Assembly: GCF_009712225.1 (NCBI RefSeq)
Contig: NZ_WASP01000012.1
Location: 1-64,000, forward strand
Direction of reading: 5' to 3'
Source of the DNA: Desulfovibrio sp.
GTDB taxonomy: Bacteria; Desulfobacterota; Desulfovibrionia; Desulfovibrionales; Desulfovibrionaceae
Length of the DNA stretch: 64,000 nt
Below the pieces are notes generated by a model. That model saw only the letters and a list, made by a program, of their open reading frames with translations, was not told where the DNA came from and did no database searches. Both the position numbers and the translations under genes were made by a program. Below, one piece after another: positions 30,584 through 63,159 of this stretch. Numbering within the stretch: the stretch's first letter is position 1; the number at the start of each line of letters is the position of its first letter.

Positions 30584-30606
30584 GTTCTCTTCCTTTCAGG
30601 ATAATG

Positions 30607-30656
30607 CCCGACCGGAAGAGACACGCCCCCCTGGGGAGGCGTGCTCCCCGGTGGGG
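30607..30656 (-). ncRNA. Conserved mRNA-leader hairpin, copy 1
   Basis: On the minus strand the leader runs CCCCACCGGGGAGCACGCC then TCCCCAGGGGGGCGTG then TCTCTTCCGGTCGGG. CCGGGGAG pairs with CTCTTCCGG (with G-U pairs), CACGCC with GGCGTG, and the outer CCC with GGG. Only the ribosome site separates it from the start codon. Near-identical leaders precede six other genes. Confidence 0.7.
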
Positions 30657-30670
30657 TTGTGGTCACTGGT

Positions 30671-31021
30671 TCAGCCGTTCGAGGCCTGCTGAACCGTGGA
30701 AACCGACCAAGTGCGGCCGTAAATCCAGGCGCTTCGCGCGCCCGGTGGCAACAGGTCTAGGTCGTCGATCACTTCCACGGTCCAGTAAGGATCGAGGAAT
30801 TTGTCATCGTTCCAGTGAAGGATATCTCCACGCTGCGTGGATTTCACTTCGACGACGAAATATCGGCCGGGAGGCGCGGTAAATTCGCCGTCTTCGGCTT
30901 CATTCCAGTAAGCGTAAATCCAGGACACTTTTAGCCTTTTGCCGAGAACCGATTCGAAATCGGCCAGAGCACCAGCCTCCGCGTCCTGTTCCATCTCGAC
31001 TATCCGCTCTGCTTTGAACAA
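30671..31021 (-). CDS. Hypothetical protein (about 116 aa)
   Basis: The protein has an acidic helical N-terminal part (RIVEMEQDAEAGALADFESV) and an aromatic C-terminal part (VSWIYAYWNEAEDGEF and WNDDKFLDPYWTVEVIDDLD). The start is uncertain: TTG at 31021 or ATG at 30994, and the frame stays open further upstream to overlap the end of the gene at 31096-31884. It would be cotranscribed with that gene. No family is recognised. Confidence 0.5.
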   Translation of the reverse strand: MFKAERIVEMEQDAEAGALADFESVLGKRLKVSWIYAYWNEAEDGEFTAPPGRYFVVEVKSTQRGDILHWNDDKFLDPYWTVEVIDDLDLLPPGARSAWIYGRTWSVSTVQQASNG

Positions 31022-31095
31022 AGCATCATAGTCGATGTCATAAGTTGTTCCCTTGATCAGGCGACCAAGGGCTCTGAGGTGCTTGCAAACATCGC

Positions 31096-31884
31096 TCAGG
31101 CCCCCTTTCCATGCTTGGCGAGGTTAAGCACATGGTTTGCGTGCCCGCCGACGTCTTGCCATTCCCGATGTTCTTCATCGGTCATGGTGTCGCCACCGTC
31201 CATGCCGTGCTTTTCCTGCAGTTTACCGGCGAACGCCCACATCTTGTCCAACCCAGCCCGCAGCTTATTCACTACGTCAGCTTCAAGAGCCGACGTCGGA
31301 ATGCCTTGGCAGGCGTTGACGCTCGCGACGATGCGAGCGGCGACGGCTTCTTGCTCCGGCGCCCAAAGTTCGCCGTTTTGGCTGAATGCAATAATCCAGC
31401 GATTTCCGACCGTGACCAGGCGGTAGTCGTTCGCATCTCCTTGCGGGTGGAATTGCCACCGGTCAGTGGAGCGGCTGATCTCGGCATCCTTCCGGTCACG
31501 TATCGCTTTTGCAGCCAGCTTGTTGCGAGCTTTGCGGCGGAATTCGGCAAAATACTCCACCATGTCAGCGCCGCTCACTTCCTCGTCGTTGTCGAACTGC
31601 GTCCAATCGATAATGGCCTGCTCGACCAACGAGGTGAGGCTGCCCGTATCGCTTTCCACCGGTGCTATCGGAGGCGCGATGCGGTCGACGTTCACCCCGC
31701 CAAGCTCCAGCTGCTCGCGGATGGTGGCATTCGCCACCATCGCCTCCATTTGGAGCGGACAAAGAAGGGACCACATCAGGCGAACGACCTCTCGGAGATC
31801 GCCAACTTCGTGGTCTGACTCACCGCTGTCCTTTCCGTGCTGGGTGGCAGCGGCGATAATGGCTTCGGCATCGATAATGATCAT
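31096..31884 (-). CDS. Hypothetical protein with conserved hairpin leader (262 aa)
   Basis: It starts MIIIDAEAIIAAATQHGKDS after GAAGGAACTGAGAC. It is soluble, mostly helical, with a basic central segment (EFRRKARNKLAAKAIRDRKD) and a Trp-containing beta stretch (RWQFHPQGDANDYRLVTVGN). The C-terminus is His-rich (EHREWQDVGGHANHVLNLAK). No catalytic motif or known domain is apparent. Its leader carries hairpin copy 2, and a further gene follows on the same transcript. Confidence 0.6.
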   Translation of the reverse strand: MIIIDAEAIIAAATQHGKDSGESDHEVGDLREVVRLMWSLLCPLQMEAMVANATIREQLELGGVNVDRIAPPIAPVESDTGSLTSLVEQAIIDWTQFDNDEEVSGADMVEYFAEFRRKARNKLAAKAIRDRKDAEISRSTDRWQFHPQGDANDYRLVTVGNRWIIAFSQNGELWAPEQEAVAARIVASVNACQGIPTSALEADVVNKLRAGLDKMWAFAGKLQEKHGMDGGDTMTDEEHREWQDVGGHANHVLNLAKHGKGA

Positions 31885-31905
31885 GTCTCAGTTCCTTCTG
31901 GTTGG

Positions 31906-31956
31906 CCCGTCCGGAAGAGACACGCCCCCTGCGGGGAGGCGTGCTCCCCGGTAGGG
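31906..31956 (-). ncRNA. Conserved mRNA-leader hairpin, copy 2
   Basis: On the minus strand: CCCTACCGGGGAGCACGCC, TCCCCGCAGGGGGCGTG, TCTCTTCCGGACGGG. The stems CCGGGGAG / CTCTTCCGG and CACGCC / GGCGTG are kept. The loop differs from copy 1 (GC inserted) while the stem pairs remain. Confidence 0.7.
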
Positions 31957-32004
31957 TATTTGATGAAGACGATGGTGCCTTGGGCGGCATCGTTAATTGG
32001 ATTG

Positions 32005-32334
32005 TCAGAGATCGAGGATCGCTCCACGAGTTACAGCGAACAGATTGCCGCTCCGCCGAAGGTTCTGAAGGGTATTGAATTTTTCATCCCTTCGCGCATC
32101 CACGTTGCAGAATGACAGCTTCGTATCGGTCTCGCGGATTCCCGTCGTGATGCACGGGTACGAGTGTCCGGCCCGCGGGCCGGTCATCCACCGGGAGAAG
32201 GACCGACAATCCATCGAACGATCCAGCTCGTATCCGATGGACGCCAGAGTGCTTGCGATGTGCGAAATCGTGGACGGACTTTGCCCACGTACCGCACGAG
32301 CGGCGATCTCGTCATCGAGCATTTGCTTGGTCAT
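32005..32334 (-). CDS. Hypothetical protein with conserved hairpin leader (109 aa)
   Basis: It begins MTKQMLDDEIAARAVRGQSP after AAAGGAAGAGAACAAC. The N-terminal 45 residues look like a helix-turn-helix-type bundle (SPSTISHIASTLASIGYELD). The rest is basic with one Cys each in CRSF, PCITT and FCNV. A small DNA- or RNA-binding protein is conceivable but not shown. The leader carries hairpin copy 3. Confidence 0.55.
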   Translation of the reverse strand: MTKQMLDDEIAARAVRGQSPSTISHIASTLASIGYELDRSMDCRSFSRWMTGPRAGHSYPCITTGIRETDTKLSFCNVDARRDEKFNTLQNLRRSGNLFAVTRGAILDL

Positions 32335-32352
32335 GTTGTTCTCTTCCTTTCA

Positions 32353-32408
32353 GGGGGTCACAACCGGAAGAGACGCGCCCTCTTGGGGAGACGTGCTCCC
32401 CGGTGGGG
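32353..32408 (-). ncRNA. Conserved mRNA-leader hairpin, copy 3
   Basis: On the minus strand: CCCCACCGGGGAGCACGTC, TCCCCAAGAGGGCGCGTC, TCTTCCGGTTGTGACCCCC. Compared with copy 1, CACGCC/GGCGTG changes to CACGTC with GGCGCGT, and the outer CCCC can pair with the GGGG of a later tract. It precedes AAAGGAAGAGA. Confidence 0.65.
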
Positions 32409-32419
32409 TCGTACTGGGA

Positions 32420-32686
32420 TTAGGCGGTATATTGGGAAACCTGCACGTCGTTGATTCCTCGGAGAATCGTGCCGACCTTCCGGCGAATGCGTCGCCATCT
32501 GGCGTGGTCCGTCTCATTAATCGTCACCGTGTGAAACCCCTTCGAGGGCGACGACACGGTCACAATGTCGGCGAGGCCGGCTTTGCACAATTCACTTCTT
32601 ATATGGTCGGCGCCGATCATCTCGATGACCAACTCGATTTCTTCAATTTCGGCCCTGGTAAAGTCTCTACCTTCGTCGCTATTCAT
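32420..32686 (-). CDS. Hypothetical protein (88 aa)
   Basis: ATG 32686 (MNSDEGRDFTRAEIEEIELV) is chosen because GGAGAG lies six bases before it; ATG 32698 is also in frame. The acidic N-terminal helix is followed by a basic stretch (ARWRRIRRKVGTILRGIND). No known domain is recognised. The leader region has a weaker version of the hairpin sequence (CCCGACCACGGGATGAGCGG then TGTCTCC). Confidence 0.5.
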   Translation of the reverse strand: MNSDEGRDFTRAEIEEIELVIEMIGADHIRSELCKAGLADIVTVSSPSKGFHTVTINETDHARWRRIRRKVGTILRGINDVQVSQYTA

Positions 32687-32699
32687 GTGGCTCTCCATG

Positions 32700-33484
32700 G
32701 ATTGGAGACACCGCTCATCCCGTGGTCGGGAAACGGCAATGCCTTCCCCAGACGGGGTCGATTTTCAGATCGAATCTGGGTGTCGTGCTCGGCTTAATGT
32801 CCGCCGGGCAGGACGTCATTCGGCTGCCAAAGACCGTTTGATGATCTGTGGCAGGTTGACGAACGCTGCAAGCAGGGATCGTCTTCTTCAACTGCTGCTT
32901 TTCGGCCAGTTGCCTACCGCCAAAGCGGAGTTGAGGGATCAACCGCTCAACCATCAAGGTGCGTTCACATGAACGCGCCAAAGATCTGGGAAGTGTAGCC
33001 GTCGAGTGCACAGGCTTCACGCGGACATAGTCCACCCGCTGATGAGGAAATCCAAATCCTCAATATTGAAAGCCTTGCGCGGACACCGGAGTGTCTTTGC
33101 TCGAAGCGCTGGCCTCCAATCGGAGGTGGGCTTGTGGCGCGCTTGCGATTCAAAGATCGCGCTCTGTCCCGAGCCACGCGAAGGTGGCAACTCGCACAAA
33201 GGCGACGGACGAAGGTAATTCTTTGTAGCACAGTCCCATAGTTTGCGAAAGCAGGAGTGTTGCGAATTGTGAATTGCTCTATGACCTCTCGTTTAAGAAA
33301 ATTACTGAAAACTGCATGAATGGGGCGAGAGCCTGTCCATGTTCCGACGTCGGAACATGGATAAGCGTCCGATTTTAGGAGGGTCCATGTCTGGCAACGC
33401 CACTTCACCGAGAGGAGAGCACTGTCAGCCAAGCAAGTATGCACCTGGATGGGGAACAAATCATCTCGTCCGTTTGGTCCGCCT
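32700..33484. other. Intergenic region holding parS-like site 4
   Basis: No gene is supported in about 780 bp. It holds a perfect 24-bp copy of the partition palindrome at 33337-33360 and some decayed-looking sequence between 32750 and 33250. It ends at the promoter of the NERD gene. Confidence 0.5.
33337..33360. promoter_or_regulatory. parS-like palindrome, site 4
   Basis: A perfect 24-bp palindrome with core TGTTCCGACGTCGGAACA, 7.1 kb from parB and not close to any start codon. Its distance from parAB supports a centromere-type role rather than simple autoregulation. Confidence 0.65.
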
Positions 33485-33515
33485 AAATTGTGACGCAGGG
33501 GACCGGTGACATAAT
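33485..33515 (+). promoter_or_regulatory. Promoter related to the CAAAT module
   Basis: TAAATTGTGA with TTGTGA at 33488-33493, a 16-bp spacer and CATAAT at 33510-33515, upstream of the GTG start at 33551. This is a distant member of the promoter set found at 0.4-13 kb. Confidence 0.5.
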
Positions 33516-33550
33516 TCCGTTATCAGGGCTAGTCGGTCCAGGAGTTAGTC

Positions 33551-34243
33551 GTGAACACTGAAAATGTATTGGGTTTTCTGACGATTGGTGCACTGGCGTA
33601 TGCTGCGATCGACGGCGTGCGATCGGCCATTAAGAAGCGCCCGACGGTGTTTGGGGCCGCAACCGATCCGCTGCAGAAGCATGGCAACGACGGTGAGGAG
33701 AAGGTCGATGCCGCTCTTCGTGAACAGGGCATTCCGACGCTCCGCAATGTGTTTCTCCAAAGCTGGAAGGAGCACGTCACAGAGTTGGATTTAGTAGCCC
33801 TCATTGGCACCTCGATCACTGTGATCGAAGTGAAAGCCTGGACTGGTGATGTGCGAGGTCGAACGGATGACGCTGAGTGGTCTCAGGTGAAAGGCCACCA
33901 GGTCAAAATGATGGGCAATCCGCTGCTGCAGAATCGTTACCATGCGCTGCACGCCCGTCGCCATTTGCCCAGGGCACATATTGCCGAATTGGTTGTCTTC
34001 ACTGAGGGAATGTTTCCAGAAGGGCAACCAGAGGGGGTGGTCGATATTCCCGGTTTGTTGGAGTATGTGGGACACCAGCGAACGGGTGAGCCGGACAGTC
34101 CGACGATGTTGGCTTGGGGAAAACTGGCTTCAATCTCTGGCCGACAGGACAAGCAGCTACTTCGTGAAAAGTTGCTTTCCCAGGTTCGCCTTGGGATGGG
34201 TGCCGAGAATAATGGGGATGACAACATCACCGTGGTAGTATAA
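33551..34243 (+). CDS. NERD-domain membrane-anchored protein (230 aa)
   Basis: An N-terminal hydrophobic segment (VLGFLTIGALAYAAIDGV, residues 6-23) probably anchors it. The NERD (nuclease-related) domain follows: HGNDGEEKVDAALREQGIPT, then HVTELDLVALIGTSITVIEV and KAWTGDV. The D-x(n)-E-x-K pattern (ELDLV...IEVKAW) is the PD-(D/E)XK nuclease-like core. The start GTG follows GGAGTTAGTC. It is probably cotranscribed with the membrane protein at 34269. The cellular substrate is unknown. Confidence 0.8.
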   Translation: MNTENVLGFLTIGALAYAAIDGVRSAIKKRPTVFGAATDPLQKHGNDGEEKVDAALREQGIPTLRNVFLQSWKEHVTELDLVALIGTSITVIEVKAWTGDVRGRTDDAEWSQVKGHQVKMMGNPLLQNRYHALHARRHLPRAHIAELVVFTEGMFPEGQPEGVVDIPGLLEYVGHQRTGEPDSPTMLAWGKLASISGRQDKQLLREKLLSQVRLGMGAENNGDDNITVVV

Positions 34244-34268
34244 GGCTCGATGTCGAGGATGAGTCAAA

Positions 34269-34652
34269 ATGAAGCAGAATTTCCAAGGATTTCTGGATTG
34301 CGCTTATAACGTCCACTACTGGGATGTTGCAGGGAAGACTGCATGCATGGTCAAGAATGGCTATGACCCCGCCGTCTACACGGTCCAGCAGGCCACTGAC
34401 CTCGCGAAGACCCAGATGCAGGACGAACTCGACCATCCGACCTTCGGCGTTGGAAGCGTCATCGTCATCGTCGTTGCTTGTTTGGCCCTTCGCTGGGTCG
34501 TCGGTGGCTTGGTCACCGCCTTCCGGACCAGAGGTCAGAGTCTGAATGGTCTGTTCGGCCCCGATAAAGGCGACACCATCGGTTCAGATGCAACTGGTAA
34601 CCTGCATTGGAATATACGTAAGAATATCGATGGCGGCTTTGATCGATATTGA
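34269..34652 (+). CDS. Small membrane protein, paralogue 2 (127 aa)
   Basis: It is the same length as the protein at 12828-13211 and closely similar throughout. Both share VAGKTACMVKNGYDPAVYTV and a C-terminal NIDGGF. One transmembrane segment lies at about residues 63-85 (GSVIVIVVACLALRWVVGGL). It starts 25 bases after the NERD gene, and a 13-bp-stem hairpin follows. The pair arose by duplication within the plasmid or by import. The function is unknown. Confidence 0.7.
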   Translation: MKQNFQGFLDCAYNVHYWDVAGKTACMVKNGYDPAVYTVQQATDLAKTQMQDELDHPTFGVGSVIVIVVACLALRWVVGGLVTAFRTRGQSLNGLFGPDKGDTIGSDATGNLHWNIRKNIDGGFDRY

Positions 34653-34653
34653 A

Positions 34654-34687
34654 ATGACCGCGGAGGTCTCCGTGCCTCCGCGGTCAT
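34654..34687. terminator. Hairpin between convergent genes
   Basis: A perfect 13-bp stem, ATGACCGCGGAGG / CCTCCGCGGTCAT, with loop TCTCCGTG, fills the gap between the plus-strand gene ending at 34652 and traG ending at 34690. It has no long T run but is well placed to end both transcripts. Confidence 0.6.
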
Positions 34688-34689
34688 GA

Positions 34690-37600
34690 TCAAGGCTTCG
34701 TAGTCCTCTCTGCCCCTTCAAAGACTTGCCCTGCAGTGTTGGTCGCAGATTTCACAAACCCTGGCGTGGCTGCGCTGGTCGCGGTGCTAAACGTATTAGC
34801 GCCCCCAACCGTTTCTTTATTACTCGCTGCGGCAATGTTTGGGCTATTGTCAACGTGATCCGACACGTCGGTCCCGGTCTTTACCAACGGTGCTCCCGCA
34901 TTGGCGACGTCATTTTGACCACTGTTAATTGCTCCGTCGTATGCGCCGAGCGTTGAGGTCACCGATCCGCGGTTGTCGTTCGCAAGGCCGGGAAGTTGCG
35001 CCGCTTCGCGGTCAACAAGACTCTTGTCGCCGCCCCTGGCCTGGTTGCCGGCTGTTACCGTCGTTTCTCCCTGCTGCGCCAAGGAACCAAATGCTGGGGT
35101 TTGGGCCGCTCCGACAAATCCGCTCTCCTGCTGGATCGATGCCCCGACGCCGGACGCCGTCGACTGCGCTCCAAGGAAGCTTTGATCTCCGCGATCAAAT
35201 AGCGCTCGCCCCATTTCCTTACGACTCGCGGAGATGCCGCTGGACAACGTGCTGCCGCCGGAGACTATATCGCGGAAAGCATAAATTCTGGCAGCGGTTC
35301 CTGAAGGATCTGCCCTAAGAAAATCGTTGAGTGCGGCCCGGTGATTACCCTCGCTCCAGTATTTGCCACCGTTTGGACTAATGAGGCCATCCATCCCTTG
35401 TGTGGCCTGCCGGAACGCCGTATTGAATTGGCCGCCATCGGTTTTTGCCCCTTCTGTGTAGGCCTTGGTCCACTGGTAGGCATTGAAGGTCCGACTCGCT
35501 TCGGTCATGTTCATTTTCTTTTCGGCCGCTTGTACGGACTGCGCTTGGCTGGCCGACTCCGCATCGGTTACCGTAGTCGTCCGCCCGTTGGTCGACGTGT
35601 ACGTCACTCCCGAAGTGTTCGCGAGTTGATCGGCCATTTCACTGGCGATGCCAAGCCTCTTTGTGTCGGCTCTCTGGGTACTTTCTTGGAACATTTGCGT
35701 AAGCGCGGTTGCCATACCGTGTTCCTGCGTCGACTGGTCGGTCGCGCTAACTTGCGCAGATCCGCCGTGTGTTATACCGAGGTTTGCCGATACCAAGCCT
35801 TTCTTTTTGCCGTCCGCATCTTTGCCGCCGAGCGCCGAATTTGCCATACCAGCGGCTTCAGCGGTGACCATGCCAGCGGCACCCCACCGCGCCATGAGTT
35901 TAGATACCGTTTCACCCGCATCGATCTTGGCCCCGCCTTCTATGGCGGTTCGCACGGCTGCAACATCAGTCGCGACCTGCTGGTCACCGTGCGCATACCT
36001 CTCCGCGAAGTCCCGTCCCGTCTGGTGATTGCGTGCATAGGCAGATGTTTTTTCTTGGGCCGCCCTAACGGCCATGCTGGTGGTGCTCGTTCCGGTAGTT
36101 CCAGAAGTGACAGCATCGGCTATGCTCTGGTTCCACGAAGCACCTGTAGTTGACACAACATTGCGGGCTTGCGTGAAGCCAGCGGACTGTTCTGAAGCGG
36201 CAATATCACGAGTACGAACACCTATGAGGCTCGATCCCACGCTGTCGAAGCCGCCCATGGCGCCGGCTTTGAAGGACCCTGCCTCAAGCGTGTATTGAGC
36301 TGCTGGTGCCAAAGAATCTGGTGATGTCTTCTTTGCCTCGTACTGCCCTTGGCCGAAGTTGCCGGCGATCGCCTCGACCCCCTTCGACGTGCCCCATGCG
36401 AGCGCCATGGCGAGGAATGGCACCGCCGCAGCGGCCTTGTCTCCCAGAGCAAGCTGGCTCTGCAGGTAAGGGTCAAAGAAACTCTGCAACCACATAAGCG
36501 AAAGTGGTTGTGCATAGGTGCCCATGGACGAGACGTAAGTTGCCGTGGTCATCGCCATGTAATAGTTGATGATCGCGAACAGAGGGTTCCAGAATTGCAG
36601 CCAGAGTGCCATTTGTCCCCATTTGATGGTCGCCTGCATTGCCATCGACCCGGTCAGCAAGAGAACGGCGAGAATGGGGGTGGCGCCATAAATGAGGCAC
36701 TCGATGATGGTGGCCATCGACTTAGCCATCGAACCGAACAGGAAACCTTCGGCATTCCAGAGATCATTTCGCTGGCGAATGGTATCTTCCAGCGATTTTG
36801 CCAGCGGATAATCGAGCCAAAGCTGCTTTGCAACGTAGACGGTCGCATCATCCCAACCGCGGGCGGCGATCGTAGCCTCAATAAACTGCTGTCCCGATAC
36901 CGAATCCAACCCGATCGCAGCAAGCGCTTGGGTCAGTTGATCAAGAGCATCATTCGCTGCGTTGGAAGAAGTGATCCCGAGCGCCGGTGCAAGAACACCC
37001 GGGGCGATGCTCGTGGTTATGATCGAGTCGGTCTGGGTCAGCAGATCGTTATAGGTGTTGCCAGCGCACGAGGTGTCATTGGTCAGGGCAGTAATGCTCG
37101 GTGCGGCCAGCGGAAAATTCAGTACACCGATACCCTTCTGCCCAAAGGTATTGATCGCGTCGGGCAGAGTGGCTGGGCCGACCGTGTTGTAGAGGTTTTG
37201 CTGCAGTTGCGGGGTGAGGCTCCGCACGATGCATTGGGAAATATACTCTTGCCAAGCACCACTCAAGTCACCGCTTTGGGCCACCTGGCCACCGCGCGTT
37301 GTGTTCTCGCGGACAATTCGCAATGTGTCGAGACCACCCATCCAACCGGCTTGAGCCGATGTCGGCGTGCTGAATGCCAACTGGCTGACATTCGTGATCG
37401 AGAGGCCGATATTGCTTAACAACGCACCGATGCCAGCTGGACCAAATGGTACATTCGACACGGTATAGGTCTGGTTAGTGGTCGGGTTTGAAACTATCAC
37501 CGGCACCGTGACGCCAAAACTGGCTCCATAGATCAGCGCCGAGGTGACCACGGTATGCGCGTCGATGCCCTTGGCCCCATTTGCCACGTAACGAAACAGA

Positions 37601-37743
37601 ATCGTCAGGATTGTCAGGATGGTGACAGCCTGGACGTTCCCCATGACCGTCCCGTCCTGCATTGACATTGCGACGGAGTTGAGAATGTGTTGGAGAAAGT
37701 TCGGATCGCCAGCGGTCCAGATCGTAAGATGAAAACTTCCCAT
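34690..37743 (-). CDS. traG: F-type conjugal transfer protein TraG (1017 aa)
   Basis: The N-terminal half is polytopic, with hydrophobic helices near residues 35-60, 70-95, about 360-390 and 430-450. It includes YGATPILAVLLLTGSMAMQA and FWNPLFAIINYYMAMTTATY, which is typical of F-type TraG. The C-terminal 500 residues are a soluble Ala/Ser/Thr/Gln-rich region, as in TraG/TraG*. F TraG acts in pilus assembly and, through its periplasmic part, in mating-pair stabilisation. It is the last gene of a traF-traH-traG operon, 7 bases after traH. Confidence 0.85.
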   Translation of the reverse strand: MGSFHLTIWTAGDPNFLQHILNSVAMSMQDGTVMGNVQAVTILTILTILFRYVANGAKGIDAHTVVTSALIYGASFGVTVPVIVSNPTTNQTYTVSNVPFGPAGIGALLSNIGLSITNVSQLAFSTPTSAQAGWMGGLDTLRIVRENTTRGGQVAQSGDLSGAWQEYISQCIVRSLTPQLQQNLYNTVGPATLPDAINTFGQKGIGVLNFPLAAPSITALTNDTSCAGNTYNDLLTQTDSIITTSIAPGVLAPALGITSSNAANDALDQLTQALAAIGLDSVSGQQFIEATIAARGWDDATVYVAKQLWLDYPLAKSLEDTIRQRNDLWNAEGFLFGSMAKSMATIIECLIYGATPILAVLLLTGSMAMQATIKWGQMALWLQFWNPLFAIINYYMAMTTATYVSSMGTYAQPLSLMWLQSFFDPYLQSQLALGDKAAAAVPFLAMALAWGTSKGVEAIAGNFGQGQYEAKKTSPDSLAPAAQYTLEAGSFKAGAMGGFDSVGSSLIGVRTRDIAASEQSAGFTQARNVVSTTGASWNQSIADAVTSGTTGTSTTSMAVRAAQEKTSAYARNHQTGRDFAERYAHGDQQVATDVAAVRTAIEGGAKIDAGETVSKLMARWGAAGMVTAEAAGMANSALGGKDADGKKKGLVSANLGITHGGSAQVSATDQSTQEHGMATALTQMFQESTQRADTKRLGIASEMADQLANTSGVTYTSTNGRTTTVTDAESASQAQSVQAAEKKMNMTEASRTFNAYQWTKAYTEGAKTDGGQFNTAFRQATQGMDGLISPNGGKYWSEGNHRAALNDFLRADPSGTAARIYAFRDIVSGGSTLSSGISASRKEMGRALFDRGDQSFLGAQSTASGVGASIQQESGFVGAAQTPAFGSLAQQGETTVTAGNQARGGDKSLVDREAAQLPGLANDNRGSVTSTLGAYDGAINSGQNDVANAGAPLVKTGTDVSDHVDNSPNIAAASNKETVGGANTFSTATSAATPGFVKSATNTAGQVFEGAERTTKP

Positions 37744-37750
37744 ATTGACC

Positions 37751-39355
37751 TCACTGCGGTCCGCCGGTGGTGCCGCCTGCCGCGCTCGTTGAGCGCCTGG
37801 GCGCCGAGAGGCTAATCACCACCTTCTCAGAAATCGCAATTCGGCGTTCCAGCTCCTTAATGCCGGCGCTGAAATCACCGTATTTGATACTCAGCTTCTG
37901 CATCTCCGCGGCGATCTCGGTTTTTGCCTTCGGATAGGATTTATCAACGAATTCGCCGAAGGCCGCGTTCTGGGCTTGCTGAGTTGTTGAGGCGGCGATT
38001 GCGGTGTCGATGCTGCGCTCGAACGTGATCAACAATGAGTCCATGTACTGAAGCGCCACCTGGTTTTGAAACTCGATGACCCACTGCTTGGCGGTGGCTG
38101 CGTCCAGCATCGACATGGTCTTCAAATCGGATCCGAGGCGGCCGGGAAGGGCCGCCAGGAACTGCATGTCACTGGCGGGTATCTGCGTTCCATTGGACCG
38201 CGTGTTCACGATGTCATCGATAATGCCATCCCCTCCGGTCCCGTTATTGCTGCCTGCCAGCCTGTTGACGATTAAAGTCGTAATCGGCGTGTAGTTCGTG
38301 TCGGTCGCTGGCGACGGATTTTGGCAGTCATTCGGCCCGCTGGTGCCGTCGCATTTCAAGTAGGTGATCGCCGTAGTGCCGCTGCCATTGTCCTGCCCGA
38401 ACATCAGGTCATCGACATGAATTGTCCGCGGCAACGGCTGGCTATTGAGCTGGGTGCCAGCACTCGATGGTGCGGTGCCCCCGGTTGAAGAGGGGTTGCC
38501 GGGCGCTGTCGTACCGTTGGACGTGGTGGCCCCAATTGTGCTCCCAGTGGTCAGAATCGCCGTGCCGGTGAGCGACATGAGTTCCTGCAGCAACAATGGG
38601 TCGCTTGCTCCTGTCAAGGCGGTGTCGACGTTCTGTCCGCTCAACGCAGCCCAGACGATATTGCCGGTGAATGGCTCCAAGGCGTTTGTGCCACCGACCG
38701 AGGTTAATGCTTGGAGCGGTGAGTTCGATGAACCACCGGTCTGGTTGGGGAAGAAGCTAGAATAGGCATCGCTGAACCCGCTTGTGAGCGCACTCAGAGA
38801 CATACCAGTATTGGCCTTCCCCGTAACGGCCGAATACCCGTCATTAACAATACCCTGCGCCAATTGGCAGGAATTATGCGTCATTTGATTGATGTCGTTG
38901 ACGAGCTTTTGAATGTATTTGATACCCTCGTCAATTTCGGGACTGACCGCAGCCAGGGCTAGATGGAATGCAAAGCCCGCCGCGTTGGAAGCCACGGCTC
39001 TGGCAAGCGAAACGAATTGCTGAAGATTCACAAAGCTAAACGATCCCGCGAACATATCGATGCCGCCGCATCCTGAATTGAAATTCGGGGGAGTGAACGA
39101 TATCAGGTTCATGTTGACGACGCGGGACCGGGCCTGCACAGCCCCGAGCGAGACGCCGCCCCGGCCGGTGGCTGAAATCGATCCAGCGCTGGTGACGTTG
39201 ATCCCTTGGAACAGATTATTCATCTGTCCGCTAAGGCCGGTATCGGCAAACGCGGTGGTCGATGAAAAAAGCGCGACAGCTGCGACCGTCGTGGTCAAGG
39301 CAGCTCGGCGCCAGCTGTGGGCGTCAATAATACGCCGACCGATGTTCCGATTCAT
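37751..39355 (-). CDS. traH: F-type conjugal transfer protein TraH (534 aa)
   Basis: A signal peptide ends near residue 38 (TTTVAAVALFSSTTAFADTG). The TraH hallmark FNSGCGGIDMFAGSFSFVNL lies at about residues 92-111. A Gly/Ser/Thr-rich linker occupies about 280-310, and the C-terminus contains a helical stretch (KLSIKYGDFSAGIKELERRI). TraH is a periplasmic protein needed for F-pilus extension that works with TraF and TraW. Its ATG overlaps the traF stop by four bases (ATGA). Confidence 0.9.
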   Translation of the reverse strand: MNRNIGRRIIDAHSWRRAALTTTVAAVALFSSTTAFADTGLSGQMNNLFQGINVTSAGSISATGRGGVSLGAVQARSRVVNMNLISFTPPNFNSGCGGIDMFAGSFSFVNLQQFVSLARAVASNAAGFAFHLALAAVSPEIDEGIKYIQKLVNDINQMTHNSCQLAQGIVNDGYSAVTGKANTGMSLSALTSGFSDAYSSFFPNQTGGSSNSPLQALTSVGGTNALEPFTGNIVWAALSGQNVDTALTGASDPLLLQELMSLTGTAILTTGSTIGATTSNGTTAPGNPSSTGGTAPSSAGTQLNSQPLPRTIHVDDLMFGQDNGSGTTAITYLKCDGTSGPNDCQNPSPATDTNYTPITTLIVNRLAGSNNGTGGDGIIDDIVNTRSNGTQIPASDMQFLAALPGRLGSDLKTMSMLDAATAKQWVIEFQNQVALQYMDSLLITFERSIDTAIAASTTQQAQNAAFGEFVDKSYPKAKTEIAAEMQKLSIKYGDFSAGIKELERRIAISEKVVISLSAPRRSTSAAGGTTGGPQ

Positions 39356-40314
39356 TGGCTGCTTGTCCTGTCGAGCTTCTTCCGAAGGATGGAAATCAGT
39401 TTGTCAGGTGAATCCAGGGTGCTGTTGTCGACCTCTGGCGGCTTCATTTGAGGAGCGTCCACTTTTGCCGGGCGGGTCGTGTCGAAGTCCTCCTCGGTCA
39501 ACACCTTCGACAACACGCCGGCTTGCAGGATCCGCACGGTCAGTTCTTGAAATCCCAAGGGGCTTTCAGCGATCGGCGTCAACTGACCGTTGTAATAAAG
39601 GAAGAGGGTGGGGGTGGCCTTCACCCCCCACGCTGCCGCCTGACCGTTGTCGACCTTATAATTAGGGAATTCGCCTCGAGGCAGTGGGCGGCCGTCCATC
39701 GAGACCGGGAATACGGTGAACCCAAACTCGCGCTCCATGGCTTGTAGGATCGGCGCTTCCATGATGCAAGGGCCGCAGTCCGATCGATAGAAAAACATTA
39801 GGCCCGTTTCCTTGGCCATGCGCTTCAGGGCAGCCACAACGTATTGGCCCGTCTCGGCATCCTTCTGGGCCGCGGCGGCGGTCAGTAGGGGCCGACGGGT
39901 GTTTTCGTCAAGGAAGGGATCGAGTTGGATCGCACGCTGCCATTGGTCCGAAAAAGTCGAAGCTCGGTCGAGGGTCAGCTTTTGCAGGTAGAGATATTGT
40001 TGAATGTGCGGGATCGTCGGCTCATCAATGGCCAGGTCCCGATACTTGGGAAGATTTTCTCGCAACCAGGCGGTGTTGAGCTTGACCTTTTCAGGCTTCT
40101 TTGGCTTTTCCGGCTCGGCTGGAGTGGCGACCTCTGGCTGAGGTTCCGCTTCCTGCGGTTCTTCTTCCGGCGCGGGATCCCGTTCGTTGTACCAGAACCA
40201 CCCCCTCTCCCGATCTCCCCACCACGGCGCTGAAGTCGTGACATCGGCCCGCGCCTGCGCATGGAAGAGACAGAAGACCGTTAAGGCGGAGGCCGCCACA
40301 AATTTGATTTTCAT
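39352..40314 (-). CDS. traF: F-type conjugal transfer protein TraF (320 aa)
   Basis: The signal sequence KFVAASALTVFCLFHAQARA makes ATG 40314 the likely start (an upstream ATG at 40350 is also in frame). A Pro/Glu-rich linker (about residues 38-68) precedes the thioredoxin-like domain. That domain contains LMFFYRSDCGPCIMEAPILQ, so the CxxC pair typical of active thioredoxin folds is kept; many F-type TraF proteins lack it. It may help form or isomerise disulfides in TraH, which is translationally coupled to it. Confidence 0.9.
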   Translation of the reverse strand: MKIKFVAASALTVFCLFHAQARADVTTSAPWWGDRERGWFWYNERDPAPEEEPQEAEPQPEVATPAEPEKPKKPEKVKLNTAWLRENLPKYRDLAIDEPTIPHIQQYLYLQKLTLDRASTFSDQWQRAIQLDPFLDENTRRPLLTAAAAQKDAETGQYVVAALKRMAKETGLMFFYRSDCGPCIMEAPILQAMEREFGFTVFPVSMDGRPLPRGEFPNYKVDNGQAAAWGVKATPTLFLYYNGQLTPIAESPLGFQELTVRILQAGVLSKVLTEEDFDTTRPAKVDAPQMKPPEVDNSTLDSPDKLISILRKKLDRTSSQ

Positions 40315-40539
40315 CGGGGTCGCTCGAAAGCCAAGAATGTGAAGCAGCATACCTTGCGGTAGGTGAGCTGATCCCCCCCCTATATCGTGCAGATTCGCGC
40401 TAAATTGCCGACCAGCTTCGGGGTGTTGTCGACGAGGCAGAGAAATTCTCGTGACAGGGGTCCGATTTTGGGTTCAATGAATTTGTGGGTCCAAAGTTTG
40501 CCGCTACCGTATAGATGCAAAGACCTTCTGGAGAGTATC

Positions 40540-40983
40540 TTGACCCAAACCGACACGACCCTCGTCACCGCGATCGAGCTAAAGAACCAAGTCTACACGA
40601 TCAGTCTTCGGATCAATGAGGCGGACTTCAAGTTCCTTGTCGCGGTGCGTCACGATGACATTCGGACTTTCATCGTCCTGGCCGACGTCCCAGACGGCGG
40701 AGGACTGAAGGTTTCGATGGTGCGTGGCGAACTGATCGCCCACGTCATGGACCGGCCGCTCGTCGACTGGGCTACGGCAAAGATTTCTTGGGGGGAGACC
40801 AGCTGGCTAACCCGCCGTGAGAACCTGGAATGGCGGAACATCCGTCGTCTCGAAATCGAGGAAGACGGCACCGTGGTCAATAAGGACTGGTTCCCGCCTG
40901 GCGTGGCCGAACCCCTGTTGCGGGCACTCGAAGACAGCGTGCCGATGCCGGCACACCTGTCCACTGAGGCGATCGGCTTTTAG
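40540..40983 (+). CDS. Hypothetical protein (about 147 aa)
   Basis: The frame is open from 40387, but composition becomes normal only from about 40540, where TTG follows GGAGAG (spacing four bases). It is a soluble alpha/beta protein with VAVRHDDIRTFIVLADVPDG and TRRENLEWRNIRRLEIEEDG. No family is recognised. It is divergent from traF and may share its promoter region. The start is uncertain. Confidence 0.5.
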   Translation: MTQTDTTLVTAIELKNQVYTISLRINEADFKFLVAVRHDDIRTFIVLADVPDGGGLKVSMVRGELIAHVMDRPLVDWATAKISWGETSWLTRRENLEWRNIRRLEIEEDGTVVNKDWFPPGVAEPLLRALEDSVPMPAHLSTEAIGF

Positions 40984-41070
40984 GATGCCTGCTCTCCCTT
41001 GGTCGTAGCTGCCATGCGATTGCTCGATCGGTCGCATGGACACCAAGGGATCCACGAAAGTGAGGGACCC

Positions 41071-41907
41071 ATGATTATGCGAGCTAAGGCGCGCGTGCGC
41101 ATTCTCGCGGCCGTCGTTGCCGCGATCTTTCTTGGTTCTGCTGCCCCACAATCGGCATTGGCCTGGGGGGCGGAAGGACATCGAGTCATCGCCGAGATTG
41201 CCGAGAAGCACCTATCGCCGGCTGCCGCTGCGCGCGTTGCAGCTCTTCTCCAGGCTGACGGCGCACCCTCCTTGGCGGCAATATCGGTCTGGGCGGATGA
41301 CTATCGTGTCCTGCATCCGGAAACCGGGAGTTGGCATTTCGTCGACATTCCGGTGGCCGAGTCCCGATACAACGCACAGCGGGACTGCCCTGGGAACAAC
41401 TGCGTTGTCGCCAAAATCAACGAGATGGCAGGGTATCTCCGTAATCCAAGCACCCCGCTTGACGGGCAGGTGATGGCGTTGAAATATCTCGTCCATTTTG
41501 TCGGCGATATCCATCAGCCGCTTCATTGCGCCGATCGTCGGGACGCCGGCGGCAACAAGCTTCGGGTGAAGCTTGGGAAGGAATTCACCAACCTGCATCA
41601 CATATGGGATACCGAACTGATCGCTATGGCCGGCGGGCACGACGCGTCAGCGTTGGCCGCGGATCTCGACGCACAGATCTCTGGTCAGGATGTGGCTGCT
41701 TGGCTGGCCAAAAAAAGTGTCGAGGAATGGGCGAACGAAACCCATCGCGTGGCGATATACAACGCTTACGCCGATCTGCCCGACAGCAAGGTAGCAGTCC
41801 AGATCGATCAAGCCTATCTCGACGCCGCTGAGCCGGTCGCTCTACACCAACTGCAGGTCGCGGGAATCAGACTAGCCAGCACGCTGAATGCGATCTTCGG
41901 GAAATGA
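41071..41907 (+). CDS. Secreted S1/P1-type nuclease (278 aa)
   Basis: A signal peptide (ILAAVVAAIFLGSAAPQSAL) ends ALA before WGAEGHRVIAEIAEKHLSP, so Trp would be residue 1 of the mature enzyme. In S1/P1 nucleases that N-terminal Trp is itself a zinc ligand. Further ligand motifs are WHFVDIP, YLVHFVGDIHQPLHC and NLHHIWDTELI. These trinuclear-zinc phosphodiesterases cut single-stranded nucleic acid, here in the periplasm or outside. Its place next to the transfer genes on a plasmid is unusual. The start ATG lies in ACCCATGATTATG; ATG 41077 is also possible. Confidence 0.9.
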   Translation: MIMRAKARVRILAAVVAAIFLGSAAPQSALAWGAEGHRVIAEIAEKHLSPAAAARVAALLQADGAPSLAAISVWADDYRVLHPETGSWHFVDIPVAESRYNAQRDCPGNNCVVAKINEMAGYLRNPSTPLDGQVMALKYLVHFVGDIHQPLHCADRRDAGGNKLRVKLGKEFTNLHHIWDTELIAMAGGHDASALAADLDAQISGQDVAAWLAKKSVEEWANETHRVAIYNAYADLPDSKVAVQIDQAYLDAAEPVALHQLQVAGIRLASTLNAIFGK

Positions 41908-42274
41908 TCGTGGACATGGTAGCTGAAGCGGCGGCAGGGCTATTGCGCTGTCGCCGTAAACTTTGCTATTTTTAATCACTTTCGTCCCTTCGCCTTCGTG
42001 TGATCGTTCAGCTTCGTCTGATCAGGACAAAAGGCAGTTTTCGGACTGCAAGCGCGCCACAAGCCCTCTCCCTTCGCGGAGACAAGCGCTCTAAGCCAGG
42101 CTTTCATCACTGGAGATTTGGTCTCCATCGCTTCGGCCGCATTGCGCCGATTTCCAGAACCCGCCCTTGCTGGCGAGTCTTTCCCCTGGCGTTACACCCA
42201 GAATCTGCCATAGCGCCCCCGTTGACGGGGGTATCAACGCGTCCAACTCGTTAACGACTTGGAAGGACATAATA
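41908..42274. other. Intergenic region
   Basis: No gene is seen. GGCGGCAG / CTGTCGCC (about 41931-41956) followed by TTTGCTATTTTT is a likely terminator of the nuclease gene. CCCCCGTTGACGGGGG near 42217 is a small hairpin in the leader of the next gene. Confidence 0.5.
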
Positions 42275-42487
42275 ATGTCGCATCTCAAATCCTACAGCAG
42301 AGCTTCATATCGAACCGACAAGGTCGCCGAGGTAGCGTTCAATACCATCGGCGTCGTTGGCATGGCTGCGATCTTCACATCGCAGCACATTGCTGGCTAT
42401 GCCTTACGCCTGCTGGTCAGCGAGCCGCTCATGTGGCTCGGTTTCAAGCACGCCGCACTGGCGGTCTTCAGTTTTCATCTTTGGTGA
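42275..42487 (+). CDS. Small membrane protein (70 aa)
   Basis: It begins MSHLKSYSRASYRTDKVAEV after GGAAGGACATA. Residues 22-65 are hydrophobic (FNTIGVVGMAAIFTSQHIAG then YALRLLVSEPLMWLGFKHAA), giving one or two membrane passes. No known family. The leader has a CCCCCG / CGGGGG hairpin, related in position but not in sequence to the conserved leaders that follow. Confidence 0.5.
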   Translation: MSHLKSYSRASYRTDKVAEVAFNTIGVVGMAAIFTSQHIAGYALRLLVSEPLMWLGFKHAALAVFSFHLW

Positions 42488-42558
42488 TTGTGCGCGGCAA
42501 CAGCATACCGCGCGCTCCAAACCCACCTGTCAATAAAGCCCCGCCGGGGAGCGCGTCT

Positions 42559-42597
42559 CCCTGAAATGGGCCGTGTCTCTCCGTCCGAGCTATGATC
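42559..42597 (+). ncRNA. Conserved mRNA-leader hairpin, copy 4
   Basis: CCCCGCCGGGGAGCGCGTC, TCCCTGAAATGGGCCGTG, TCTCTCCGTCCGAG. The inner stem uses CCC/GGG around a larger loop and the outer CCGGGGAG / CTCTCCG stem is shortened. It is the most diverged of the seven close copies. Confidence 0.55.
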
Positions 42598-42613
42598 TGG
42601 AAGGAAAGACATC

Positions 42614-43306
42614 ATGAAACAGACAGCGAAGTACCCCTGCCCTGGCGACAGTGAATTTTGGGCGATCAGGCGAGTTGCTTTGGGACTGATCGCCGACATC
42701 GACGTCGATATTCGCACCCTCACACTTGAGGAAGAAGGCCCCTACTGGGATGCTCTTCAATTCGCCAGGATCACCCCTATGGTCCGCGAGATCCTCAGCG
42801 CACATGGGCTGGAAGCACTGTTGACGCCGGCGCTCGGACCCATCCCGGAAATACCGGCAAAATCCGACGACGACTTGATCGCCGAATATTTTAGCTGGGA
42901 GCCCACGGATGATCCGGAGGTTCTTGCCGACCGAAGGTGCGAAGAGGAGTCATATCTCGGTCATCTCGCCGATATGGCAGAACGCGCACCGATGGTTGAA
43001 CGCATCATGACGGACGAAGGCATCGTCCGGATCGTTACGCATTCTTCTGATGACGAGGAATCATCGAGTTTCAGCCGCAAAAGTTATCTCAACGGTGAAC
43101 TCCATGATATCGACGGTCAACCCGCCGTGCGGAAGTCCTCGCATCATCGAATCCTCTCTGAAGGATATTTGGATGAGGATTTCGAGGAGTCATACTGCCG
43201 CGGCGAGCCCGTCGCGTACATCAGCCATGATGACAGAGTTGTCGACGGATGGTGTCACGCCCAGCGCGTGGCGTTCGGCGCGGCCGAGTTCGACGACGCA
43301 GCATAA
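42614..43306 (+). CDS. Hypothetical acidic protein with hairpin leader (230 aa)
   Basis: It begins MKQTAKYPCPGDSEFWAIRR after GGAAGGAAAGACATC. It is acidic with many Asp/Glu stretches (SDDEESSSFSRKSYLNGELH and EGYLDEDFEESYCRGEPVAY). There is no membrane segment or known domain. DNA-mimic proteins are acidic like this, but that idea is only a possibility. It lies in a run of four unknown genes that share the leader hairpin. Confidence 0.6.
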   Translation: MKQTAKYPCPGDSEFWAIRRVALGLIADIDVDIRTLTLEEEGPYWDALQFARITPMVREILSAHGLEALLTPALGPIPEIPAKSDDDLIAEYFSWEPTDDPEVLADRRCEEESYLGHLADMAERAPMVERIMTDEGIVRIVTHSSDDEESSSFSRKSYLNGELHDIDGQPAVRKSSHHRILSEGYLDEDFEESYCRGEPVAYISHDDRVVDGWCHAQRVAFGAAEFDDAA

Positions 43307-43319
43307 AGACCAAATTCAT

Positions 43320-43369
43320 CCCGCCGGGGAGCACGTCTCCCCAAGGGGATGTGTCTCTTCCGGTCGGGG
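43320..43369 (+). ncRNA. Conserved mRNA-leader hairpin, copy 5
   Basis: CCCGCCGGGGAGCACGTCTC, CCCAAGGGGATGTG, TCTCTTCCGGTCGGGG. The inner stem has CACGTCTCCCC with GGGGATGTG, and the outer CCCG pairs with CGGG. Compared with copy 1 the inner stem has changed in both arms. Confidence 0.7.
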
Positions 43370-43389
43370 ATACCCGAAAGGAAAGAGAT

Positions 43390-43845
43390 ATGGCGACAAG
43401 ATTTGTCTGGACTTGCTCTTACATGGGGTGCGCCTGGTTTGACGTGTATCCTGATAAGGGCGAGAAATTCTCGGTTGAACTCCGCCGCGAGTTGTCCGAT
43501 TACGAACGGTCAACCCTGAACAAGAGGACCGACCCGGAACGGGAGATTATCCCGACAATCGGCATGCTACGGCGGGAAAGCAGGGGCAATATTCCAATCC
43601 CAAAGGAAATCGTCCGTGACTTCAACGCGTGGCGACTCGCAGACTGGGAAACGCAGATTGCGAAAATGCGTTCTCAGCCCGAGCGCTACGGCGAAATCCT
43701 CGCAGAGGATCCTCTTTTCCGGCGGCCTAAGCCCGTCGGGGCGGTGCATTTCGAAAATATGAAGGACACGGATCACGGCTACTTTTGGGTCGTGGACGTG
43801 GCGCCGGCGGAACCGACGTTGGCACCCGCCGAATTGGCGGCCTGA
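43390..43845 (+). CDS. Hypothetical protein with hairpin leader (151 aa)
   Basis: It begins MATRFVWTCSYMGCAWFDVY after GAAAGGAAAGAGAT. The body is charged and helical (VELRRELSDYERSTLNKRTD, NAWRLADWETQIAKM). The C-terminus has a beta segment (HGYFWVVDVAP). There is no membrane segment; two Cys lie near the N-terminus. No family is recognised. Confidence 0.6.
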   Translation: MATRFVWTCSYMGCAWFDVYPDKGEKFSVELRRELSDYERSTLNKRTDPEREIIPTIGMLRRESRGNIPIPKEIVRDFNAWRLADWETQIAKMRSQPERYGEILAEDPLFRRPKPVGAVHFENMKDTDHGYFWVVDVAPAEPTLAPAELAA

Positions 43846-43860
43846 CCACCATTGCAACGA

Positions 43861-43909
43861 CCCCGCCGGGGAGGACATCTCCCCTCGGGGACACGTCCTC
43901 CTCGGTAGG
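43861..43909 (+). ncRNA. Conserved mRNA-leader hairpin, copy 6
   Basis: CCCCGCCGGGGAGGACATC, TCCCCTCGGGGACAC, GTCCTCCTCGGTAGG. Here CCGGGGAGGAC pairs with GTCCTCCTCGG over 11 positions. Both arms differ from copies 1-5 in a compensating way, which is the best evidence that the fold matters. Confidence 0.7.
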
Positions 43910-43930
43910 ATCCTTTCTCGGAGAATATCG

Positions 43931-44464
43931 ATGAAGATGAAAAAGCAGACGAAAGTCATGGTCTATGGCGTCGAAGGGATCGGCGCCAATAAGACGGAAG
44001 CCCGGTCCGATGCGGAGAATCGCCTGACCGCGTTGGTGCAGGCGCCGGAACCGACAGTCGAGGTGTTTCGAGGTCAAGCGATCTTGATCTATCGCACGTT
44101 GCACGGTTGGAATACGTCGTTCCTCACTGATGAAACCGGGCGGATACTGCCTCACCAGAACCAGAGTGTGTCCATGTGGGCGGAACCGGACCTGGGCAAA
44201 ATCCAGGCTGCGGTCCGCGTCCATCTCGGCCAGATCTGCTGGTCTTTGGCCGAGCCTGACGATGACGCCTTCGCAAACGAGGCCTTTCCATACGCTTTCC
44301 CAGGATCTCTGGGAGAGCGTAGCAAGGACGATCTCAAGAAATGGATGCGCTGGCAGCGAACGTACCAGGCAGCAATAGCTGCCGGGCTTTGTGACAACGA
44401 AGCGCGGGAAGTGGCCGATGGTTTCCGTCGGCTCCCACGCGATCGAAATTCAACGGCTGCCTAG
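43931..44464 (+). CDS. Hypothetical protein with hairpin leader (177 aa)
   Basis: It begins MKMKKQTKVMVYGVEGIGAN after TCGGAGAATATCG. The N-terminal 80 residues are alpha/beta (AKTEARSDAENRLTALVQAP-like, VFRGQAILIYRTLHGW), and the C-terminal part is helical and acidic with Trp. No known family. Leader copy 6 precedes it. The function is unknown. Confidence 0.6.
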   Translation: MKMKKQTKVMVYGVEGIGANKTEARSDAENRLTALVQAPEPTVEVFRGQAILIYRTLHGWNTSFLTDETGRILPHQNQSVSMWAEPDLGKIQAAVRVHLGQICWSLAEPDDDAFANEAFPYAFPGSLGERSKDDLKKWMRWQRTYQAAIAAGLCDNEAREVADGFRRLPRDRNSTAA

Positions 44465-44485
44465 GCTGTCCGATCAACCCACTTG

Positions 44486-44530
44486 CCCACGGGGAAATGC
44501 GCTCCCAAAGGAGGCGTGCTCCTCCTGGTG
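44486..44530 (+). ncRNA. Conserved mRNA-leader hairpin, copy 7
   Basis: CCCACGGGGAAATGCGCTC, CCAAAGGAGGCGTG, CTCCTCCTGGTG. The pairs CCAC / GTGG-like at the base and GCGCTCC / GGAGGCGT inside are kept with changed sequence. It precedes ACAGGAGAAC. Confidence 0.55.
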
Positions 44531-44553
44531 CAACGCAAACACAGGAGAACAGC

Positions 44554-44910: not shown

Positions 44911-44913
44911 GCC

Positions 44914-45171: not shown

Positions 45172-45176
45172 TAAAA

Positions 45177-45213: not shown

Positions 45214-45237
45214 GATCAGATCTGACGCGCTGGCTGA

Positions 45238-59005: not shown

Positions 59006-59015
59006 TGACTTTCTC

Positions 59016-60930: not shown

Positions 60931-60992
60931 GATGGTCTCCCGATATCAGGGGCCGGTGCAGTCTTCGCCGCACCGTCTCCATCAAAGGATGA

Positions 60993-63126: not shown

Positions 63127-63159
63127 GTTGTTCTCCGAGATGCGGAGAAGGCGCACTGA

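What the first reader, a model, noticed from the sequence alone, without database searches (positions are those of the whole stretch)
30607..44530. A family of long mRNA-leader hairpins in front of seven unknown genes
Seven leaders (30607-30656, 31906-31956 and 32353-32408 on the minus strand; 42559-42597, 43320-43369, 43861-43909 and 44486-44530 on the plus strand) share CCGGGGAGCACG, CTCCCC, GGGG, CGTGTCTCTTCCGG and end just before the ribosome site. The stems hold while sequence changes: CACGCC/GGCGTG in copy 1, CACGTCTCCCC/GGGGATGTG in copy 5, CCGGGGAGGAC/GTCCTCCTCGG in copy 6. That is compensatory change. No T run follows, so they are not simple terminators. The same element sits before unrelated genes on both strands and both sides of the tra operon, which suggests a shared post-transcriptional control (protein or sRNA target, or ribosome-site masking). 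More distant versions precede the RNase H and AAA+ genes. I do not recognise it as a known RNA class.
Basis: partly seen in the sequence, partly recalled or inferred. Interest (0 to 1): 0.78.

Follow-up and report, generated by a model that had tools for sequence, protein, structure and literature searches.

The report
Two-state RNA leaders across plasmid genes
On a wide group of large conjugative plasmids, including the IncA/C plasmids that often carry antibiotic resistance, many genes start with a short RNA leader that can fold in two mutually exclusive ways, one hiding and one exposing the ribosome site; this looks like a built-in translation switch that the RNA family database Rfam does not list.

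Summary
The seven repeated leaders are real and are the only strong hits in the 3.67 Mb genome. Each fills an intercistronic gap, ends 16-23 nt before a start codon, and matches no Rfam family. Its 3' arm (d, e.g. UCUCUUCC) also complements the ribosome site (e, GGAAGAGA), and its 5' arm (a, GGGGAG) can pair locally with b (CUCCCC). So two folds exclude each other: a:d with b:c (site free), or a:b (H1) with d:e (H2; site hidden). Four more window genes have leaders on this plan (RNase H, AAA, VWA, an 88-aa ORF). The same plan, with almost no conserved sequence, precedes most genes of the homologous ssb/recT/exo/AAA/DUF3150/VWA island of Pseudomonas, Delftia, Azonexus, Methylomonas, Azospirillum and IncA/C plasmids. 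There a:d and d:e are leader-specific against swapped partners; a:e is not. One IncC leader occurs in 690 PLSDB records. Best reading: a cis-acting bistable translation switch, predicted to pass H1, open, then closed during transcription. The anatomy is well supported; the trigger is inferred. Covariation within the seven copies alone is not significant.

The parts
30581..30657 (-). Leader copy 1, through the start codon of the 326-aa ORF 29603-30583. H1 ACCCC..GGGGAG-CACGC-CUCCCC..GGGG; H2 GCGUGUCUCUUCC/GGAAGAGA-A-CAUGC (start codon paired)
   Evidence: MFE is the closed state -47.6, open -38.5 kcal/mol
31882..31957 (-). Leader copy 2, before the 262-aa ORF 31096-31884. H2 GUGUCUC..UUCC/GGAA..GAGACAU (2-nt bulge, start codon partly paired)
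   Evidence: closed -38.0, open -34.8
32332..32409 (-). Leader copy 3, before the 109-aa ORF 32005-32334. H2 UCUCUUCC/GGAAGAGA
   Evidence: closed -27.9, open -20.8
42538..42616 (+). Leader copy 4, before the 230-aa ORF 42614-43306. H2 GUGUCU.UCC/GGA.AGACAU
   Evidence: closed -32.5, open -25.4
43317..43392 (+). Leader copy 5, before the 151-aa ORF 43390-43845. H1 CAUCCC(GCC)GGGGAG(CACGU)CUCCCC(AAG)GGGAUG; H2 GUGUCUCUUCC/GGAAAGAGAUAU
   Evidence: closed -43.2, open -34.8
43860..43933 (+). Leader copy 6, before the 177-aa ORF 43931-44464. Open hairpin strongly favoured (CCGGGGAGGAC/GUCCUCCUCGG); d:e weak
44484..44556 (+). Leader copy 7, before the 118-aa ORF 44554-44910. Open hairpin favoured; d:e (CUCCU/AGGAG) possible
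32684..32756 (-). Leader of the same plan, other sequence, before the 88-aa ORF 32420-32686 (H2 UCUCCA..UGGAGA)
59003..59069 (-). Leader of the same plan, other sequence, before RNase H (58547-59005): H1 CCCUCUGGGGGAGCGUUCCCUCAAGGGG; H2 GACU.UCUCC/GGAGA.AGUC
60928..60992 (-). Weaker leader of the same plan before the VWA/CobT-like gene (59092-60930)
   Evidence: below the descriptor thresholds
63124..63195 (-). Leader of the same plan before the AAA/CbbQ-like ATPase (62161-63126): H1 AUCCCUCAGGGGAGGGUCACUUUCCCCUGGUGGGGAU; H2 UUCUCCG/CGGAGAA
29603..32686 (-). Minus-strand operon of unknown genes with copies 1-3 between its cistrons
42614..45171 (+). Plus-strand operon of unknown genes with copies 4-7 in front of its cistrons
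34690..40350 (-). TraG-N, TraH, TraF genes (F-type conjugation) between the two leader groups

Best explanation
Each element is a cis-acting, bistable translation switch in the mRNA leader of one gene. Segments in order: x (CCC), a (GGGG plus apical loop, a mimic of the ribosome site), b (CCCC), c (GGG), d (anti-SD), e (SD to start codon). Closed state: x:c and a:b form hairpin H1 and d:e forms H2, which hides the SD and sometimes the AUG. As the RNA is made, the predicted most stable fold goes H1, then open (once d is out), then closed (once e is out), so new transcripts should be translatable and shut with time; a ribosome ending at a nearby upstream stop could also reset H1. Shown here (by sequence): the two exclusive pairings, their leader-specificity on eight other plasmids, their place at start codons. 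Inferred: that they act in mRNA, that the closed state blocks translation, and the timing/ribosome trigger.
For: Fixed-window swap test without structural selection: d:e P<=0.00075 and a:d P<5e-5 on each of eight plasmids, control a:e never significant; 11 window leaders d:e P=5e-5, a:d P=1e-4; 23 other window genes not significant. With boundaries set after H1: L023 a:b/c, a:d, d:e all P<2e-5, controls c:d and a:e >0.8; the seven window copies d:e P=0.0006, H1:d P=0.039 (automatic boundaries). Descriptor hits far above shuffles and mostly at annotated starts: 28 vs 2.3, 15 vs 2.0, 11 vs 0, 19 vs 0.3, 12 vs 1.3; none in neighbouring tra/copper regions; chromosome at background. Orthologous IncA/IncC leaders show d and e changing together. 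Prefix folding order H1, open, closed. Both states of comparable stability in window copies 1-5, closed lower by 3-9 kcal/mol.
Against: No RNA, structure-probing or expression data. Within the seven copies alone two-sided changes do not exceed shuffles, and a:d alone is not significant for them (P=0.20). Copies 6 and 7 favour the open state. Not found on Citrobacter L035 and only in part on Marinobacter L034. Folding at equilibrium by prefix is not a kinetic simulation; path barriers are rough. RNAalifold gives no consensus on 39 leaders.
Confidence: 0.72

Rival explanations
1. Translation-coupling relay: the switch is real, but its trigger is the ribosome that finishes the upstream cistron. 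It covers x and a, breaks H1, and leaves the leader in the open state, so downstream genes are translated only if the upstream one is.
For: Leaders start 10-19 nt after the upstream stop in five of seven window copies and 0-25 nt after it in most operon-internal leaders of L023, within or near the footprint of a terminating ribosome; leaders are absent where genes overlap.
Against: Leaders of genes with 150-400 nt of upstream gap have the same structure. Short spacing may only reflect compact operons.
Confidence: 0.3
2. The leaders are switches read by a trans-acting factor (protein, sRNA or metabolite) that stabilises one state on all genes of the island.
For: One plan is shared by many genes of one island, which suggests joint control; the seven window copies share much sequence.
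Against: Across 39 leaders only AACCC, G/C blocks, SD and AUG are conserved; no Rfam aptamer.
Confidence: 0.2
3. Constitutive intercistronic GC hairpins that stabilise or mark processing sites in polycistronic mRNA (REP-like), with no switching.
For: They lie between cistrons; hairpins are very stable; no T run follows in most.
Against: A plain hairpin does not explain why d matches its own e or why the same d also matches a. Leaders are also found where the upstream gap is long.
Confidence: 0.1
4. Single-stranded DNA elements (Frpo-like promoters or protein sites) used while the plasmid enters as ssDNA.
For: Genes are of the establishment type (ssb, recT, exo, methylases, primase) on conjugative plasmids.
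Against: No promoter-like sequence; the pairing partner is the SD/start-codon region, and the spacing to the start codon is fixed, which points to translation.
Confidence: 0.05

Closest known systems
Translational attenuators of the erm type and SD-sequestering expression platforms of riboswitches (established knowledge)
   Same: Mutually exclusive helices; one hides the ribosome site, the other frees it.
   Different: No separate leader peptide and no conserved ligand-binding domain; the competitor strand is an apical-loop decoy of the ribosome site; present in front of many genes of one plasmid, each with its own sequence.
Start-Associated and Extended Start-Associated Sequences (SAS/ESAS) of cluster K mycobacteriophages (PMC3203893)
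   Same: Repeated elements with inverted repeats just upstream of the start codons of many unrelated genes, including the SD; function unknown, translation proposed.
   Different: SAS is a fixed 13-bp sequence and the ESAS repeats have a consensus sequence; the authors found little support for hairpins in mRNA. Here pairing is kept and sequence is not.
DUF3085 RNA (Rfam RF02959)
   Same: Found on the same kind of plasmid; in the Azonexus plasmid two copies lie upstream of such leaders, and the model's 3' end (CAACCC..CGGG) is the beginning of H1.
   Different: No match in the window, L023 or pRA1; the family does not model H1/H2 or the switch.
STAXI motif (Rfam RF01728; PMC2864571)
   Same: Structured repeat near ssb, antirestriction and integrase genes of mobile elements.
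   Different: Tandem pseudoknots, often with UUCG loops; no match here.

Membership tests
Any Rfam 15 family | score at or above the curated gathering threshold | tested here: not met
   window: no hit, none credible at E<=5; L023 and pRA1/Methylomonas leaders: none
DUF3085 RNA (RF02959) | AGCUGG..CCAGCC core upstream of the leader | tested here: not met
   absent in the window; present upstream of Azonexus leaders only
STAXI motif (RF01728) | tandem pseudoknot repeats | tested here: not met
   no Rfam match; one H1/H2 unit per gene
Cluster K SAS/ESAS | 13-bp GGGATAGGAGCCC at the start site and a conserved inverted-repeat sequence | tested here: not met
   aligned leaders show no such sequence
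erm-type translational attenuator | mutually exclusive helices hiding or freeing the SD | tested here: met
   by sequence and folding only:
erm-type translational attenuator | short leader-peptide ORF at which a ribosome stalls | tested here: not met
   by inspection, five of seven leaders begin 10-19 nt after the stop of a full-length gene, with no room for a leader peptide; not searched systematically elsewhere
Riboswitch | ligand-binding aptamer with conserved sequence | tested here: inconclusive
   no known aptamer and no conserved core over 39 leaders; ligand binding not testable here
Intrinsic terminator | GC stem followed by a T run | tested here: not met

The most novel reading that the evidence does not exclude
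A widespread, unlisted class of self-timing RNA switches, in which a decoy copy of the ribosome site captures the anti-SD during transcription, so that plasmid establishment genes are translated from newborn mRNA (for example just after conjugative entry) and then silence themselves, with no ligand and no conserved sequence.
Probability: 0.35. Interest if true: 0.95.

Novelty: new variant of a known kind. Interest (0 to 1): 0.85.

Why it matters
It would give most genes of the establishment/accessory island of major conjugative plasmid groups (IncA/C, Pseudomonas megaplasmids and others) a common, unrecognised layer of control; one IncC leader alone occurs in 690 PLSDB records. It could help explain how such plasmids keep dozens of foreign genes cheap and express them at the right moment. 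It also shows a form of RNA regulation that covariation pipelines would miss, because pairing is kept while sequence, length and alignment are not (RNAalifold found no structure on 39 leaders).

Tried and rejected
Exact pattern scan of genome contigs for the window-type leader: 0. CM R1 in relatives and in about 300 genomes of the class: only weak hits; the two read in full were a terminator after a MucR-like gene and a hairpin with no start codon behind it. Plasmid blastn with copy 5: none. TraH-based search for sister plasmids: none. First version of the bistable descriptor was too loose (21 vs 5 shuffled) and was replaced. Automatic H1 calling mislabels window copies because the open hairpin also begins CCGG, so hand boundaries were used for them. 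MAFFT shifts d:e by one column between copies 1 and 5, so d:e was not counted with the pair-count tool. RNAalifold on 39 leaders: no structure. Considered and set aside: intrinsic terminators, REP-like spacers, integron-like recombination sites (co-directional cassettes with hairpins, but the pairing is to the SD), ssDNA promoters. Literature searches found no description of these leaders; the paper that defined DUF3085 RNA is not held.
Full report
OBSERVATION. The seven leaders exist as described. A covariance model built from them finds only these seven, plus antisense of copies, as strong hits in the window and in the whole 3.67 Mb assembly. Nothing in Rfam matches. Each copy lies between co-directional genes: 10-19 nt after the previous stop in five, 47-50 nt in two, and 16-23 nt before the start codon. 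Where genes overlap there is no copy. Flanking proteins have no Pfam match above cut-off and no PHROG match; the 109-aa protein behind copy 3 has relatives on large plasmids of Novosphingobium, Comamonadaceae and Azonexus and on Rts1. TraG, TraH and TraF lie between the two groups.

ANATOMY. Folding each leader through its start codon changes the picture. In copies 1-5 the most stable fold is not the long hairpin but two hairpins in a row: H1, with CCC/GGG outside and GGGGAG/CUCCCC inside, and H2, in which the long hairpin's 3' arm (UCUCUUCC) pairs with the ribosome site (GGAAGAGA), reaching into the AUG in copies 1 and 2. The long hairpin is the best fold when the ribosome site is kept free. 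The two states share strands: a (GGGG + loop) pairs with b or d; d pairs with a or e. Copies 6 and 7 favour the long hairpin. Four more window genes have leaders of this plan with other sequences: the 88-aa ORF (start 32686), RNase H (59005), AAA ATPase (63126) and, more weakly, VWA (60930).

COVARIATION WITHIN THE SEVEN COPIES IS WEAK. In the long hairpin 3 of 20 pairs have two-sided changes, reached by 90 of 500 shuffles; in H1 1 of 10, reached by 234 of 500.

THE SAME PLAN ELSEWHERE. A weak protein match led to a Pseudomonas psychrotolerans plasmid (NZ_CP102429.1, locus L023), where nearly every gene of a 20-kb island (ssb, RecT, exonuclease, AAA, DUF3150, VWA, methylase, many unknowns) has H1 directly followed by an SD-pairing H2, each with its own sequence. 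The window plasmid carries homologous genes (AAA, DUF3150, VWA, toprim). The same plan appears on pQBR55, a P. aeruginosa plasmid, Delftia, Azonexus, Azospirillum and Methylomonas plasmids, IncA pRA1 and IncC plasmids.

TEST OF THE TWO PAIRINGS. If a:d and d:e are real, a strand should pair better with its own partner than with partners swapped in from other leaders of the same plasmid. With fixed windows and no structural selection of leaders this holds on L023 (n=25), pQBR55 (16), P. aeruginosa (19), Delftia (16), Azonexus (12), Azospirillum (25), Methylomonas (13) and pRA1 (24): d:e P<=0.00075 and a:d P<5e-5 on each, while the control a:e is never significant. Eleven window leaders give d:e P=5e-5 and a:d P=1e-4; 23 other window genes give nothing. 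The eleven were chosen after seeing their folds. The fixed-window a:d measure includes part of H1; with boundaries set after H1, a:d still holds: P<2e-5 on L023 by hand (controls c:d and a:e above 0.8) and P<=0.0004 on L023, pQBR55, P. aeruginosa and Delftia by an automatic rule, P=0.02 on Azonexus. For the seven window copies alone, d:e P=0.0006, H1:d P=0.039, a:d P=0.20: near-identical paralogs leave little room for a swap test.

SPECIFICITY. A descriptor requiring H1, H2 and the alternative hairpin finds 28 places against 2.3 with shuffled upstream sequence in the L023 island, 15 vs 2.0 on the P. aeruginosa plasmid (all at annotated starts), 11 vs 0 on pQBR55, 19 vs 0.3 on pRA1 (17 at annotated starts), 12 vs 1.3 on Methylomonas, 10 vs 1.7 on Delftia, 14 vs 6.7 on Azospirillum. 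It finds none in the tra and copper regions beside the L023 island and 8 vs about 10 in 100 kb of the host chromosome. Citrobacter L035 has none, Marinobacter and Stutzerimonas few, so the plan is common but not universal.

HOMOLOGOUS COVARIATION. Orthologous leaders of pRA1, Shewanella pSX2 and a Salmonella IncC plasmid keep the switch strands while upstream flanks drift. In the leader at pRA1 17023, d and e change together (GUGCGU/ACGCAU-type to GUGUGC/GCACAC-type) while a stays compatible with both. One IncC leader is present in 690 PLSDB records.

MECHANISM. Folding of growing prefixes gives a consistent order: H1 when c emerges, the long open hairpin when d emerges, the closed state when e emerges (window copies 1-5, RNase H, AAA). 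In the P. aeruginosa set the prefix before the SD is open in 15 of 19 and the full leader closed in 18 of 19; in L023, 19 and 21 of 24. At shared d positions of 30 leaders the a base equals the e base in 200 of 257 cases: a is a decoy of the ribosome site (these leaders were chosen as having both pairings, so this describes the design and does not test it). I infer that newborn mRNA is open and closes later, and/or that a ribosome finishing the upstream gene resets H1. Neither trigger is shown. A sequence-specific regulator common to all is unlikely because the leaders share almost no sequence.

RELATION TO KNOWN THINGS. It works like SD-sequestering attenuators and riboswitch platforms, but lacks a separate leader peptide and a conserved aptamer. 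It resembles ESAS repeats of cluster K phages in position (PMC3203893) but not in sequence conservation, and those authors saw little support for mRNA hairpins. DUF3085 RNA (RF02959) lies just upstream of such leaders on the Azonexus plasmid and its model ends where H1 begins; it does not describe H1/H2. The claim of novelty is limited to Rfam 15 and the open-access papers searched.

Noticed in passing
L017 4702-4759 and 10679-10736 (Azonexus plasmid NZ_CP151407.1): DUF3085 RNA (RF02959) sits directly upstream of two-state leaders; its modelled 3' end is the start of H1, so the published motif may be the 5' part of a longer leader.
   Followed up: partly
L023 upstream of 14522, 23071, 24175, 26944, 28099: Leaders with a long upstream gap carry an extra AGCUG..CAGC hairpin before H1, similar to but not matched by DUF3085 RNA; it may mark transcription starts.
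   Followed up: no
L033 12456, 13944, 26846; L023 26226; L039 7674, 20880: Leader hits at unannotated starts, in two cases close to an annotated gene (RecT of pQBR55 annotated at 14019, leader start 13944; pRA1 20841 vs 20880), suggesting missed genes or wrong start sites.
   Followed up: no
L023 30001-30095: A very strong hairpin (about -60 kcal/mol) before the toprim gene, unlike the other leaders.
   Followed up: no
window 45175-45215: A GC hairpin followed by a run of T just after the last gene of the plus-strand operon; looks like an ordinary intrinsic terminator.
   Followed up: no
window 48348-50104: DUF6088 + AbiEii pair, an AbiE-type type IV toxin-antitoxin module.
   Followed up: no
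L002 1501-1554 (same-genus genome): The weak model hit in a related genome is a terminator after a MucR-like gene, so chromosomal weak hits are not relatives.
   Followed up: yes
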